Assembly: GCA_028285035.1 (NCBI GenBank)
Contig: JANQQF010000106.1
Coordinates: 62,001 to 126,000, forward strand
Source of the DNA: Phycisphaerae bacterium
GTDB lineage: Bacteria > Chloroflexota > Anaerolineae > 4572-78 > J111
Length of the DNA stretch: 64,000 nucleotides
Direction: 5' to 3'
The notes under the pieces were generated by a model. The model ran no database searches. It saw only the letters and a program-made list of their open reading frames with translations, and had not been told where the DNA came from. The position numbers were made by a program, and so were the translations under genes. This document shows positions 58,348-62,194 of the stretch, piece after piece (the first letter of the stretch is position 1; each line of letters opens with the position of its first letter).

Positions 58348-58601
58348 TAACACGTAGCAGAGATTGCTAACTTCGTTGTCAATCTAAAATATGAGATTAG
58401 CAACCTTGGTTACAAAACCCCTTTTTTACATCATTCAACCCAACCTTTATTTAGCCGCAATATCCCTCAAAAATTTGGACAAAATCCAAGAAATTCTTCA
58501 AAATCCGCACCCCTCCTGACCTCGGCTTAAATCGAAAAATTCCCACGACACTAAAACAACCAAAATATTAATTTTTTAAGGTTAACAACCAAAAGTTCCT
58601 C
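58348..58601. other. intergenic region without gene
   Basis: AT-rich, no gene or clear site, apart from a TTGCTAA/TTAGCAA inverted pair about 30 bp apart near 58365-58405. The nrdR promoter region begins at 58602. Confidence 0.4.
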
Positions 58602-58630
58602 TTGTCAACTGACATAAAACAGTGTATACT
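58602..58630 (+). promoter_or_regulatory. nrdR-nrdJ promoter
   Basis: TTGTCA at 58602-58607, exactly 17 bp, TATACT at 58625-58630. Transcription would begin near 58637, giving a leader of about 350 nt. Confidence 0.7.
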
Positions 58631-58644
58631 TGTCTTGCTTTTGC

Positions 58645-58688
58645 CACGAGATGTCGTGTAGAGGTGGGGTACACCACAACATCTAGTG
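58645..58688 (+). promoter_or_regulatory. pair of NrdR-box-like sites
   Basis: CACGAGATGTCGTG (58645-58658) and CACAACATCTAGTG (58675-58688), centres 30 bp apart, about three helical turns. Against the consensus CACWATATATWGTG they match 10 and 12 of 14 positions. They lie just downstream of the -10, a position suited to repression by the encoded NrdR. Confidence 0.55.
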
Positions 58689-58755
58689 CTAAAACACTTC
58701 ACATAAATAAAAAACTAAGCCATGAATTTTAACAATATTTTGTCGGTCTCACACG

Positions 58756-58959
58756 CGAACAAATGTACTAAACTAGCGGCTTTCAGCCGATTTGTTTATG
58801 ATTCACCTGAGACTTTTTCCCAAAATTTGGGAGCATCACAAGGCACAAAACAGCCAAGCTGGTTGATGAAATTTATCTTATTAAAACTTTAGATTTGGGG
58901 TGGGAAAATTCCACCTAATTCGGTGACATCGGGTGATTTTAGGCCGCGTCACCTTTTTT
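58756..58959 (+). promoter_or_regulatory. structured nrdR leader with terminator-like hairpin
   Basis: Four stem-loops: AACAAAT/ATTTGTT (58758-58796) enclosing CGGCT-TTC-AGCCG; CCCAAA-A-TTTGGG (58819-58831); GGTGGGAAAATTCCACC (58899-58915); and GGTGAC (58922-58927) with GTCACC (58948-58953) followed by six T, 27 bp before the nrdR ATG. CACC at 58912-58915 can instead pair with GGTG at 58922-58925, breaking the terminator stem, so an attenuation switch is possible. No known riboswitch class was recognised. Confidence 0.5.
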
Positions 58960-58986
58960 ATGTAAAAGTGAGAGAGGTTCAAACGT

Positions 58987-59496
58987 ATGAAATGCCCATT
59001 CTGTGGTGCCCTTAGTAAACAGATAAAAGTTATTGACACCCGCGAGGTGGCCGATGGCATCCGCCGTCGCCGTCAATGCGAGGATTGTGATCAACGGTTC
59101 ACCACGTATGAACGAATTGCGAGTATGAACCTGCTTGTTGTTAAACGGGATGGTCGTCGTGAAGAATTTGATCGGGAGAAGTTGGTCAAAAGTATGCGTA
59201 TTGCCTGTTCAAAACGTCCCGTTTCAAGTGCATCTATTGATGGCGCAGCTAAAGATATTGAAGCCAAGCTATATGCCTTGGGCAAAAGCGAAATCAACAG
59301 CTTGAAAGTTGGCGAGATGGTGATGGACAGCCTGCAAGACATTGATGATGTGGCCTATGTGCGTTTTGCCTCGGTTTATCGCCGATTCCGCGATGTGGAC
59401 AGCATTGCCGAAGAAATTCAACAGCTTCAGGCCCGCCGCCGCCGAGAGGAAGAGCTTAAGAATCAAATGCCTTTACCGATCGGCGATGAGGAATAG
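58987..59496 (+). CDS. nrdR: transcriptional repressor NrdR
   Basis: ATP/dATP-sensing repressor of ribonucleotide reductase genes, 169 residues. The N-terminal zinc ribbon has Cys3, Cys6, Cys31 and Cys34 (CPFCG and CEDC), then the ATP-cone domain at about 48-138 starting VVKRDGRREEFDREKL. Immediately upstream of nrdJ with a 163-bp repeat-containing gap, so it probably controls that gene together with itself. Confidence 0.96.
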   Translation: MKCPFCGALSKQIKVIDTREVADGIRRRRQCEDCDQRFTTYERIASMNLLVVKRDGRREEFDREKLVKSMRIACSKRPVSSASIDGAAKDIEAKLYALGKSEINSLKVGEMVMDSLQDIDDVAYVRFASVYRRFRDVDSIAEEIQQLQARRRREEELKNQMPLPIGDEE

Positions 59497-59557
59497 CAAA
59501 TAGCAAAATCTTAGGTATTAGGTTTTGTTTTATTTATATATCAAAACTTTAAGGAAA

Positions 59558-59629
59558 TTAGAGATTACAGGTTAGAGATTGTGTTGCTGTGTTACAGAGT
59601 CTCCAATCTCCCCATCTCCAATCTCCTAA
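59558..59629. repeat. inverted heptamer repeats between nrdR and nrdJ
   Basis: TTAGAGA, TTACAGG, TTAGAGA (59558-59578) face CTCCAAT, CTCCCCAT, CTCCAAT, CTCCTAA (59601-59629). The arms are inversely related but imperfect. No T-run follows, so read-through into nrdJ is likely. Confidence 0.65.
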
Positions 59630-59659
59630 ACCAGTCAACCATTGAGGAGAGATTTTATT

Positions 59660-62194
59660 ATGGCATTAAACACAGAGGTTCTGGCCGATACGCTTCCCAA
59701 CAGCAAAAACGGCCATCAAACAAACGGGACACATCTCGAAAAAGATCGAAATGCCCTACATCCGCTGGGCGAGAAGATTTTTCTTGATCGATATGCCTTG
59801 AAGGACGGCAAGAAGGAGTCGGTCGCGGTCGGGGATGTGGTCATCGTGGCTGTCAACTTAGAAACGGGCCAGCGTGAGATTGGTACGGTAAAAAAGGTCG
59901 AGGGTCGAAATTTAACCATCGAGTTGCGGGACGGTGAAATTGTCGAGCGAGCCTTGGAAAACATCGATAAGCCCTTGGAAACCCATCCCTCACAGATGCT
60001 GGATCGCGTGGCCCGGGGTCTGGCTGAAGTGGAAGCACCGGAAAAACAGCAAGAGTGGCAAGAAAAGTTCCGCTGGTTACTCGATGAGTGGAAGTTTATT
60101 CCGGGTGGCCGAATTCTGACCGCTGCGGGCACCGACCAAAACCTGACCTTCTACAATTGCTATGTAATCCCCAGCCCCAAAGACAGCCGCGAAGGAATTA
60201 TGTCCACCTTGACCCAGATGACTGAAATTATGTCTCGGGGGGGTGGCGTTGGGATCAACATTTCCAGCCTACGTCCACATCACGCCTATGTCAAAGGCGT
60301 CAACGGTCGCTCGAGTGGGGCGGTTTCCTGGGGTGAATTGTACAGCTTTGTGACCGGATTGATCGAGCAGGGCGGCAGCCGCCGTGGCGCGTTGATGCTG
60401 ATTATGAATGTGTCACACCCCGACGTCATGGAGTTCATCAACAGTAAACGCACGATGGGCAAAATCACAAACGCCAACATCAGCGTTGGGATCACCGATG
60501 ATTTTATGGAAGCGGTCAAACAAGATGCCGACTGGGATCTTGTTTTCCCTGACACCAGCGATCCTGACTATGATGAAATTTGGGATGGCAATCTAGAGGC
60601 TTGGCAAGCCCTGAATAAGCCCGTTGTCGTCCACAAAACGATGCGTGCCCGCGATATCTGGAACAGCATTATCGAAAGTGCCTGGGCCAGCGCTGAGCCG
60701 GGTATCTTCTTTGTTGAGCGCTACAACAAGATGAGCAACTCCTGGTACTATGCCCCAATTTTATGCACCAATCCTTGTGGTGAGCAAGGATTGCCCGCCT
60801 GGGGGGTGTGTAACTTAGGTGCGCTCAATCTCTCTAAATTTGTCACCGATGGTGAGGTTGATTGGGATGATTTGAGTCAATCCGTTCGTTACGCGGTTCG
60901 CTTCCTCGATAACGTCATCGATGGCACCCCCTATTTCTTTGAAGAAAACGCCAACCAGCAGTTGAATGAACGTCGGGTTGGTTTAGGCACGATGGGTTTG
61001 GCCGAGATGCTCATTCGGCTTAAAATTCGCTACGGGAGCGCAGAGAGCGTCGAATTCCTCGATAAATTGTACCGTTTTATCGCCAGTGAAGCCTACTTGG
61101 CCTCAGCCGACAACGCCGCCGAAAAAGGTGCGTTTACCCACTTTGACCAAGAAAAATTCCTGCAAAGTGGCTTTATGGAAGGAATGCCTGAGGATGTTCG
61201 AGCCGCCATTGCTGAGAAAGGCATCCGCAACGTCACCTTGCTAACCCAAGCCCCCACTGGCACCACCGGCACGATGGCCAACACCTCAACTGGTATCGAG
61301 CCCTTCTACTTCTGGAGTTTCCACCGCAAAGGGCGCATGGGCACCCACGAAGAGCGGGTCACTGTATACGATGAATGGCTGACCGAAAATCCAGACCAGC
61401 CCTTGCCTGATTACTTTGTTACCTCAATGGATCTGAAGCCTGAAGAGCACGTTCGCGCTCAGGCCGCCATCCAGCGCTGGATCGACTCCAGCATCAGCAA
61501 GACCTGTAACACGCCCAACGATTACACCGTTGAACAGACCCGCGAATTGTATGAATTGATGTATGAGTTGGGTTGTAAAGGTGGCACCATCTATCGGGAT
61601 GGCTCACGGGATGTTCAGGTTCTCAATTTGAAAGAAGAAAAAGAGCAAGAGAAGCCAGCCCCAGCCCCTCAACCCGAAATCAAATGGCGTGCTCGTCCAG
61701 CTACCCTACACGGCAACACCTACCGCAAATCGACGCCCATCGGCACCGCCTACATCACCGTCAACGCCAACGGGGGTGGGGATCAACAGCCATTTGAGGT
61801 CTTCATCAACGTCGGTAAGGTGGGCAGTGATGTCGCTGCCGACGCCGAAGGGCTAGGCCGCTTGATTAGCATGATCTTACGAATGCCCAGCCCCCTCAGT
61901 CCAGAGGAGCGGGTACAAGACATCGTCGCCCAATTGCGCGGCATCGGCTCCGGTCGTGCCCAAGGCTTTGGCAAAAATCGGGTGATGAGTCTGCCCGATG
62001 CTGTCGCCCAAGTTCTGGCCGAGCACACCGGCATCAACCCCACCGGTGAGTTACCCGGCTTGCCGGATGAGGACGAAACGTCTCAACCCACCCTCAACCT
62101 GAAAGGCGATCTCTGCCCCGGTTGTGGCTCCGCCACCTTGCTCCACATCGAAGGCTGCAAGAAGTGCCTCGAGTGCGGGTATAGTGAGTGTTAG
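59660..62194 (+). CDS. nrdJ: class II (adenosylcobalamin-dependent) ribonucleotide reductase
   Basis: Reduces ribonucleotides to deoxyribonucleotides with a cobalamin-derived thiyl radical. 844 residues from ATG 59660; GAGGAGAG is 8 nt upstream, and an earlier ATG at 59642 overlaps that site. Catalytic cysteines: Cys167 (FYNCYV), Cys373 in NPCGE (with Asn371 and Glu375) and Cys384 (GVCNL), the spacing of the Thermotoga enzyme. APTGTTGTMANTSTGIEP and a C-terminal zinc-ribbon-type tail (CPGCGS, CKKCLECGYSEC) complete the family pattern. Residues about 51-106 are an extra SH3/KOW-like beta module between the RYALKD and THPSQMLDRVARG motifs. The TAG stop lies inside a TTAGGGA repeat unit. Confidence 0.94.
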   Translation: MALNTEVLADTLPNSKNGHQTNGTHLEKDRNALHPLGEKIFLDRYALKDGKKESVAVGDVVIVAVNLETGQREIGTVKKVEGRNLTIELRDGEIVERALENIDKPLETHPSQMLDRVARGLAEVEAPEKQQEWQEKFRWLLDEWKFIPGGRILTAAGTDQNLTFYNCYVIPSPKDSREGIMSTLTQMTEIMSRGGGVGINISSLRPHHAYVKGVNGRSSGAVSWGELYSFVTGLIEQGGSRRGALMLIMNVSHPDVMEFINSKRTMGKITNANISVGITDDFMEAVKQDADWDLVFPDTSDPDYDEIWDGNLEAWQALNKPVVVHKTMRARDIWNSIIESAWASAEPGIFFVERYNKMSNSWYYAPILCTNPCGEQGLPAWGVCNLGALNLSKFVTDGEVDWDDLSQSVRYAVRFLDNVIDGTPYFFEENANQQLNERRVGLGTMGLAEMLIRLKIRYGSAESVEFLDKLYRFIASEAYLASADNAAEKGAFTHFDQEKFLQSGFMEGMPEDVRAAIAEKGIRNVTLLTQAPTGTTGTMANTSTGIEPFYFWSFHRKGRMGTHEERVTVYDEWLTENPDQPLPDYFVTSMDLKPEEHVRAQAAIQRWIDSSISKTCNTPNDYTVEQTRELYELMYELGCKGGTIYRDGSRDVQVLNLKEEKEQEKPAPAPQPEIKWRARPATLHGNTYRKSTPIGTAYITVNANGGGDQQPFEVFINVGKVGSDVAADAEGLGRLISMILRMPSPLSPEERVQDIVAQLRGIGSGRAQGFGKNRVMSLPDAVAQVLAEHTGINPTGELPGLPDEDETSQPTLNLKGDLCPGCGSATLLHIEGCKKCLECGYSEC

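What the first reader, a model, noticed from the sequence alone, without database searches (positions are those of the whole stretch)
58602..58986. nrdR-nrdJ control region: strong promoter, NrdR-box pair and possible attenuator
A near-consensus promoter is followed by two NrdR-box-like palindromes centred 30 bp apart, then a leader of about 350 nt with four hairpins. The last is terminator-like (GGTGAC/GTCACC plus six T), 27 bp before the ATG. CACC at 58912 can alternatively pair with GGTG at 58922, so terminator and antiterminator forms are mutually exclusive on paper. NrdR repression combined with leader attenuation in front of a B12-dependent reductase would be a two-layer control. It does not fit a known riboswitch I recognise.
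Basis: partly seen in the sequence, partly recalled or inferred. Interest (0 to 1): 0.72.

Follow-up and report, generated by a model that had tools for sequence, protein, structure and literature searches.

The report
Translated leader attenuator before nrdR-nrdJ
The DNA between the switch-off sites and the start of a DNA-building-block operon holds a conserved tiny gene followed by a terminator-like RNA hairpin, so this operon is probably tuned a second time by a ribosome reading that tiny gene, which would be a new setting for a known kind of control.

Summary
The described elements are real. A -35/-10 pair and two degenerate NrdR boxes, centres 30 bp apart, lie before nrdR-nrdJ. The box pair keeps this spacing in 10 of 10 long-leader loci, window included. 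The last hairpin (GGTGAC/GTCACC plus T6) is recognisable in 8 of these 10; 7 of 10 fold better than shuffles at p <= 0.022, combined p about 1e-8.

All 10 long leaders have an ORF of 35-56 aa ending 21-45 nt before the hairpin; shuffles predict 0.43 of 10. Codon-level conservation and database homologues of one version support coding.

The proposed antiterminator (CACC/GGTG) has counterparts in 6 of 10 leaders, but is energetically weak. In the window the terminator keeps probability 0.82-0.99 even with a ribosome masked at the ORF stop.

Best reading: NrdR operator control plus translation-coupled (leader-peptide) attenuation, a new variant of a known kind. The signal is unknown, and no transcript data were available.

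The parts
58573..58585 (+). conserved TTTTTAAGGTTAA element upstream of the -35 (role unknown; UP-element-like or regulator site)
   Evidence: exact in window; TTTTTAAGG or TTTTAAGGTT recurs before nrdR in 10 of 10 long-leader loci and 3 of 4 group B loci; also elsewhere in some genomes
58602..58630 (+). sigma-70-type promoter TTGTCA-17-TATACT
   Evidence: -10 pattern conserved in 9 of 10 long-leader loci
58644..58659 (+). NrdR box 1
   Evidence: 30-bp register conserved
58674..58689 (+). NrdR box 2
58696..58706 (-). TTATGTGAAGT, a reverse-oriented copy of the TTATGTNAA element that follows box 2 in several relatives
58722..58892 (+). leader ORF, 56 aa, MNFNNILSVSHANKCTKLAAFSRFVYDSPETFSQNLGASQGTKQPSWLMKFILLKL; no clear Shine-Dalgarno in the window
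   Evidence: an ORF in the corresponding place in 10 of 10 long leaders
58898..58916 (+). hairpin P1, starting 5 nt after the ORF stop (possible anti-antiterminator or pause hairpin)
   Evidence: window p 0.032; 10 leaders combined p 0.023
58912..58925 (+). possible antiterminator CACC 58912-58915 with GGTG 58922-58925
   Evidence: counterparts in 6 of 10 leaders; energetically weak
58922..58959 (+). terminator-like hairpin GGTGAC...GTCACC (58922-58953) and T6 (58954-58959)
   Evidence: model R1 matches below E 0.8 in the order lie only before nrdR
58958..58966 (+). TTATGTAAA element just before the nrdR Shine-Dalgarno
58987..59496 (+). nrdR
   Evidence: TIGR00244, 173.9 bits over cut-off 124.65
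59657..62194 (+). nrdJ, adenosylcobalamin-dependent ribonucleotide reductase
   Evidence: TIGR02504, 587.7 bits over cut-off 399.95

Best explanation
The nrdR-nrdJ operon of this Chloroflexota clade is controlled at two successive points. First, NrdR binds the two boxes just downstream of the promoter and represses. Second, transcripts that escape run through a leader of about 350 nt that encodes a short peptide. The position of the ribosome at or near the peptide's stop codon decides whether the hairpins between stop and nrdR let RNA polymerase pass or terminate it 27 bp before nrdR. This is leader-peptide attenuation. Shown or well supported: the conserved box pair, the conserved ORF with a coding signal, and the conserved terminator-like hairpin at a similar distance after it. 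Inferred: that NrdR binds, that the hairpin terminates transcription, that the ORF is translated, and that the two are coupled. Unknown: the signal. I see no run of one control codon, so amino-acid starvation of the trp or his type is unlikely; peptide-dependent arrest or a general translation/transcription coupling signal fits better.
For: An ORF of at least 35 aa ending 20-46 nt before the terminator is found in 10 of 10 long leaders; the shuffle expectation is 0.43 and the largest value in 2000 rounds is 4 (for L096 only the last 260 nt before the hairpin were used). Stop-to-terminator distance 21-45 nt in all 10. L097/L098: the last 24 codons, stop included, keep 16 residues against 10.06 expected (13 of 20000), with 8 and 12 kept in the other two frames; whole ORF 22 of 45 against 15.4 (70 of 20000). 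Database homologues of the L094 peptide keep its C-terminal SHHSVCQKLK while the N-terminus varies. Terminator-like hairpin: combined p about 1e-8 over 10 leaders; right-arm variants read by eye from A3 are GUCACC, GUCGCC, GUCACU and GUCGCU, which differ only by wobble-compatible letters. Own pairing register 75% of cells against 33-58% for slid ones. P1: combined p 0.023, starting 1-7 nt after the stop in 7 of 10. Local antiterminator complementarity: 6 of 10, shuffles 0.59 (0 of 2000), species-swap control 5 of 2000. L097 and L098, sisters in the nrdR tree, have CCTG/CAGG and CCCG/CGGG, a compensatory change. In the window the Shine-Dalgarno-like GAGAGAGG (58970-58977) lies outside the hairpins, which favours a transcriptional switch.
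Against: The antiterminator is weak: -2.6 to -6.5 kcal/mol against -11.9 to -15.0 for the terminator in five of six leaders and -5.2 in L097. In the window the terminator keeps 0.82-0.99 with a ribosome masked at the stop. A first, looser form of the antiterminator test (any loop, 32 nt upstream) gave only 33-389 of 1000 shuffles as good in the 8 leaders with a helix (window 80) and no helix in L096 and L100; the loop limits were set after that. By a recalled d'Aubenton-Carafa-type score 4 of 10 hairpins score as terminators, in an earlier variant 2 of 9. L096, L097 and L099 do not fold significantly there (p 0.91, 0.45, 0.07). On the MAFFT alignment A3 covariation does not exceed shuffles (144 of 500). 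The window ORF has no evident Shine-Dalgarno; no homologue was found for it or for the L097/L098 type, and the L094 peptide does not find the other leader ORFs by similarity. Peptides of different subclades are barely alike. The limits of the ORF test were also set after seeing the leaders, and other ORFs of 35 aa or more exist in some leaders.
Confidence: 0.5

Rival explanations
1. The leader ORF makes a small functional protein, the operon is smORF-nrdR-nrdJ, and the hairpin is a fixed partial terminator that sets the ratio between the small protein and nrdR-nrdJ. No switching.
For: Coding signal and gene-called homologues; in the window the terminator is stable whether or not a ribosome is masked at the stop.
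Against: The peptide changes almost completely between subclades while its stop-to-hairpin distance is kept, which fits a regulatory leader better.
Confidence: 0.2
2. RNA-only attenuator or riboswitch: a ligand-binding leader RNA toggles terminator and antiterminator.
For: Mutually exclusive CACC/GGTG pairing, with counterparts in 6 of 10 leaders.
Against: No Rfam match at gathering score (best sub-threshold matches E 1.2 or worse); the region 5' of the ORF stop is coding and divergent; R1 matches below E 0.8 only at nrdR (at most 150 candidates scored per genome); energetics; a longer-range antiterminator is not significant (p 0.18).
Confidence: 0.1
3. Constitutive structure: the hairpin is a boundary or mRNA-stability element without regulation, and control is by NrdR alone.
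For: L103 and L104 do without the long leader, so it is not needed for nrdR expression in general.
Against: Kept arrangement of ORF and hairpin in one clade.
Confidence: 0.15

Closest known systems
Leader-peptide attenuators such as tnaC and trpL (mechanisms recalled; PMC8429421 and PMC3902921 seen only as search listing and abstract starts)
   Same: Short ORF ending just before alternative hairpins, with a 1:2, 2:3, 3:4-like arrangement of P1, antiterminator and terminator upstream of the operon.
   Different: Different operon (ribonucleotide reductase), no control-codon run seen, no known ligand, weak antiterminator.
Streptomyces coelicolor nrdRJ operon (PMC9110341, passages read)
   Same: nrdR followed by a class II reductase, tandem NrdR boxes about three helix turns apart at the promoter.
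   Different: The passages shown mention no leader ORF or attenuator; box spacer 15-16 bp (PMC12051234, passages) against 14 bp here.
Cobalamin riboswitch in front of RNR operons (Propionibacterium acnes nrdAB and nrdDG, PMC3848588, passages read)
   Same: Premature termination in the leader of an RNR operon as a layer beside NrdR.
   Different: That paper says nrdRJ is not annotated with the riboswitch; here no cobalamin riboswitch matches and the leader appears to be coding.

Membership tests
NrdR-regulated operon | two NrdR boxes with a spacer of 14-17 bp at the promoter | tested here: met
   14-bp spacer, conserved in relatives; single-box match to the recalled consensus is poor
NrdR-regulated operon | NrdR protein with a downstream RNR gene | tested here: met
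   TIGR00244 and TIGR02504 above cut-off
NrdR-regulated operon | NrdR binds the boxes and represses | not testable with these tools
   needs EMSA or a reporter
Leader-peptide attenuator | conserved short ORF between promoter and terminator | tested here: met
   10 of 10 long leaders; coding signal in two pairs, weaker in L094/L095, and in homologues
Leader-peptide attenuator | intrinsic terminator before the first structural gene | tested here: inconclusive
   hairpin conserved, good U-tract in the window, poor recalled score in 6 of 10 leaders
Leader-peptide attenuator | alternative antiterminator that competes with the terminator | tested here: inconclusive
   complementarity recurs (weaker) but is not competitive in folding in the window
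Leader-peptide attenuator | readthrough depends on translation of the ORF | not testable with these tools
   needs reporter or in vitro transcription-translation
Amino-acid-starvation attenuator (trp/his type) | run of codons for the regulated amino acid | tested here: not met
   no consistent residue near the stop in the 10 peptides, by eye
Cobalamin or other known riboswitch | match to an Rfam model | tested here: not met
   0 matches at gathering score; 3 sub-threshold matches, E 1.2-2.9

The most novel reading that the evidence does not exclude
A clade-specific arrest peptide stalls the ribosome at the leader ORF stop in response to a metabolite tied to DNA-precursor status (a nucleotide or a cobamide), and so gates transcription into nrdR-nrdJ. 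It would be a translational sensor layered on the NrdR nucleotide sensor.
Probability: 0.2. Interest if true: 0.85.

Novelty: new variant of a known kind. Interest (0 to 1): 0.58.

Why it matters
RNR operons are known to be set by NrdR and, in some bacteria, by cobalamin riboswitches. A translated leader would be a third kind of input, letting the cell tie DNA-precursor synthesis to ribosome behaviour before the repressor and the enzyme are made. Because nrdR itself is downstream, the attenuator would also tune the repressor of its own promoter. In the open-access library searched here (judged by titles and abstract starts, lists capped) I saw no paper on leader-peptide attenuation of an RNR operon; subscription journals are largely absent from that library.

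Tried and rejected
Riboswitch reading: Rfam at gathering score and at E up to 5 gave nothing credible. Model R1, searched in 25 genomes of the order, gave 8 matches at E below 0.005, all before nrdR, and 6 others at E 0.8 or worse. R1 was built from these same nrdR leaders plus the window, so the 8 are found by construction; at most 150 candidates per genome were scored, so absence elsewhere is not complete.

dif-site or Xer-insertion reading of TTATGTNAA(G)T near both ends of the long leader: it resembles the XerD arm of dif as recalled. A 20-base pattern with up to 3 mismatches found 23 places in 13 genomes against 7 for the reversed control; 6 of the 23 are nrdR sites, and I saw no shared XerC-like arm in the other 17 (by eye). 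Two of those (L132, L134) lie just upstream of promoter-like sequences on the other strand. The leader is kept in a clade rather than excised, so this was dropped; the motif stays unexplained. Its repeated control shows some excess that I did not explain.

Antisense promoter reading of the same motif at nrdR: no consistent -10 by eye.

Long-range antiterminator within the ORF (for example TCACCTG/CAGGTGA in L094): combined p 0.18, rejected.

Direct blocking of the terminator by a ribosome (pyrBI type, recalled): the stop lies 21-45 nt before the terminator, too far for most leaders.

Homologue searches with the window peptide and with the L097/L098 pair found nothing. The L094 peptide searched in 25 genomes found only its own locus below E 0.03.

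NrdR box pairs elsewhere in 9 long-leader genomes: the strict pattern found only 3 of the nrdR sites themselves, so it says nothing about other targets. Alignment A2 was trimmed badly and replaced by A3. The L096/window figure is not used, because its many-gapped protein alignment favours identities.

Full report
Setting. The window encodes a helicase (TIGR03817), an MBL-fold hydrolase, NrdR (58987-59496, TIGR00244) and NrdJ (59657-62194, TIGR02504) on the + strand. The eight best NrdR relatives of the 80 loci kept are titled Anaerolineae, Ardenticatenia or Chloroflexi bacteria. In the order of G004, 22 of 25 genomes have an nrdR match at E <= 1e-20, giving loci L094-L115; some repeat loci (for example L098 = L001).

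Observation. The promoter has 10 of 12 matches; by itself it is not rarer than chance, but the -10 pattern is kept in 9 of 10 long-leader loci. The two boxes are poor against the recalled consensus (not found with up to 3 mismatches). A pair 30 bp apart nevertheless recurs in 10 of 10 long-leader loci and in L103, L104 and L108; L106 and L107 have it at 31 bp. L105 and L109-L115 show no pair at my threshold (8 of 23 rows). A 14-bp spacer lies within the 14-17 bp that four NrdRs bind (PMC12051234, passages).

Two leader types. In L103 and L104 the boxes are followed by TTATGTAAA and then closely by nrdR. In the window and L094-L102 a leader of 243-297 nt (604 in L096, with inserted repeat-like sequence) separates box 2 from nrdR. 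On an nrdR tree of 23 rows the long-leader loci need one change against the four rows of group B (support 97/97; 9 other rows not counted). In the drawing they form one open group (90/93) together with the long-branched L114, which has no visible boxes. One origin of the leader is the simplest reading.

The leader appears to be coding. In each of the 10 long leaders an ATG-started ORF of 35-56 aa runs to a stop 21-45 nt before the terminator hairpin. Start codons are my choice; L099 and L102 have an earlier in-frame ATG (46 and 42 aa), and L094 and L097 an earlier TTG. With dinucleotide shuffles, an ORF of at least 35 aa whose stop falls 20-46 nt before the hairpin is expected in 0.43 of 10 leaders; 10 of 10 have it and no shuffle round exceeded 4 (L096 cut to its last 260 nt). 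I set these limits after looking; other ORFs of 35 aa or more also exist in some leaders (L096, L097, L098, L100, L101). Coding signal: L097/L098 keep 16 of 24 positions (stop included) at the 3' end against 10.06 expected (13 of 20000), including Leu TTG/CTA and stop TGA/TAG exchanges; whole ORF 22 of 45 against 15.4 (70 of 20000). L094/L095 keep 16 of 39 against 12.0 (965 of 20000), weaker and on a gapped protein alignment. A search of 5.8 billion proteins with the peptide alignment found 3 entries (E 7.8e-8, 1.7e-4, 0.18): one identical to the L094 peptide and two variants, all ending SHHSVCQKLK, with variable N-termini; their genomic context could not be seen. The window's own ORF is 58722-58892 and ends LLKL; it lacks a clear Shine-Dalgarno and has no homologue in that database.

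The hairpins. The last hairpin plus a T-rich stretch and TTATGTAAA aligns in A1 and A3. Folding against shuffles is significant in 7 of 10 leaders individually at p <= 0.022, combined p 1e-8; L096 and L097 are negative and L099 has a different hairpin at the same place (p 0.07). The left arm GGTGAC is nearly fixed (GGTAAC in L097, GGTGAA in L102) and the right arm reads GTCACC, GTCGCC, GTCACT or GTCGCT, differing by wobble-compatible letters (by eye). The formal count on the unrefined alignment does not exceed shuffles in covariation, although its own register pairs better than slid ones. The hairpin P1 begins 1-7 nt after the ORF stop in 7 of 10 leaders; combined p 0.023, so only moderate.

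The switch. Between P1 and terminator a 4-6 bp helix with a loop of 5-7 nt can form in 6 of 10 leaders: window CACC/GGTG; L094, L097 and L101 CCTG/CAGG; L098 CCCG/CGGG; L102 ACCTGT/ACAGGT. Shuffles give 0.59; dealing the upstream segments among species gives 2.6 on average and reaches 6 in 5 of 2000 rounds. A looser first test was much weaker, and the limits followed from it. Energies are unfavourable: -2.6 to -6.5 kcal/mol against -5.2 to -15.0 for the six terminators. In the window, masking 9-12 nt after the stop removes P1 but leaves the terminator at 0.82-0.99, and the antiterminator reaches at most 0.11 before the terminator's second arm exists. Of the six leaders only L097 and L102 show a sizeable antiterminator share in the full transcript. 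The switch must therefore be kinetic, or helped by a factor, or it is not the mechanism.

Mechanism. I commit to translation-coupled attenuation (0.5): the ORF is conserved in place and, where P1 exists, ends where a terminating ribosome would cover its 5' arm, and the Shine-Dalgarno-like stretch of nrdR is free. A fixed partial terminator behind a small protein gene (0.2), a non-regulatory structure (0.15) and an RNA-only switch (0.1) are the rivals.

Known systems. Open-access literature searches (titles and abstract starts, some lists capped) showed no leader-peptide attenuator of an RNR operon. P. acnes nrdAB and nrdDG are annotated with cobalamin riboswitches and its nrdRJ is not (PMC3848588, passages). 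NrdR of S. coelicolor binds the nrdRJ promoter with dATP plus ATP (PMC9110341, passages). No Rfam family matches here at gathering score.

Verdict. A translated, clade-specific attenuator-like leader in front of nrdR-nrdJ would be a new variant of a known kind and is worth a reporter test.

Noticed in passing
58573-58585: TTTTTAAGGTTAA, about 16 bp before the -35, is conserved before nrdR in this order; shorter forms (TTTAAGG) stand before nrdR in L033, L036, L042, L055 and in 6 of 8 class-level loci L161-L168, and it occurs before a few other genes (L119, a radical-SAM methylthiotransferase-like ORF by eye). Role unknown.
   Followed up: partly
58696-58706 and 58958-58966: TTATGTNAA(G)T stands before nrdR in 9 of 10 long leaders and also shortly after box 2 in 6 of them (reversed in the window, variants in L098 and L102 by eye); in the four group B loci it is single, 25 nt after box 2, against 11-14 nt in those six. 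It is quasi-palindromic and resembles the XerD arm of dif as recalled; unexplained.
   Followed up: partly
L098, L101, L103, L104, L108 upstream of nrdR: NrdR box 2 reads ACCAC...GTGGTTTTTT, so as RNA the operator itself would be a terminator-like hairpin (by eye). Not so in the window.
   Followed up: no
L107, 188 nt before nrdR: Outside the long-leader group, a 23-aa ORF (MPFSVSTSGHLFRPFVHKIFTHR) with a GGAGG site lies between the NrdR boxes and nrdR, followed by inverted repeats: possibly an independent translated leader.
   Followed up: partly
G005 contig C246 and G006 contig C421: NrdJ reading frames of 1225 and 1207 aa whose matches to the window's NrdJ fall in separate pieces with a gap of about 1.1 kb, as an intein would give.
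   Followed up: no
59497-59656: The nrdR-nrdJ gap holds inverted repeats of the GAGATTG/CAATCTC type (by eye), probably a dispersed repeat.
   Followed up: no
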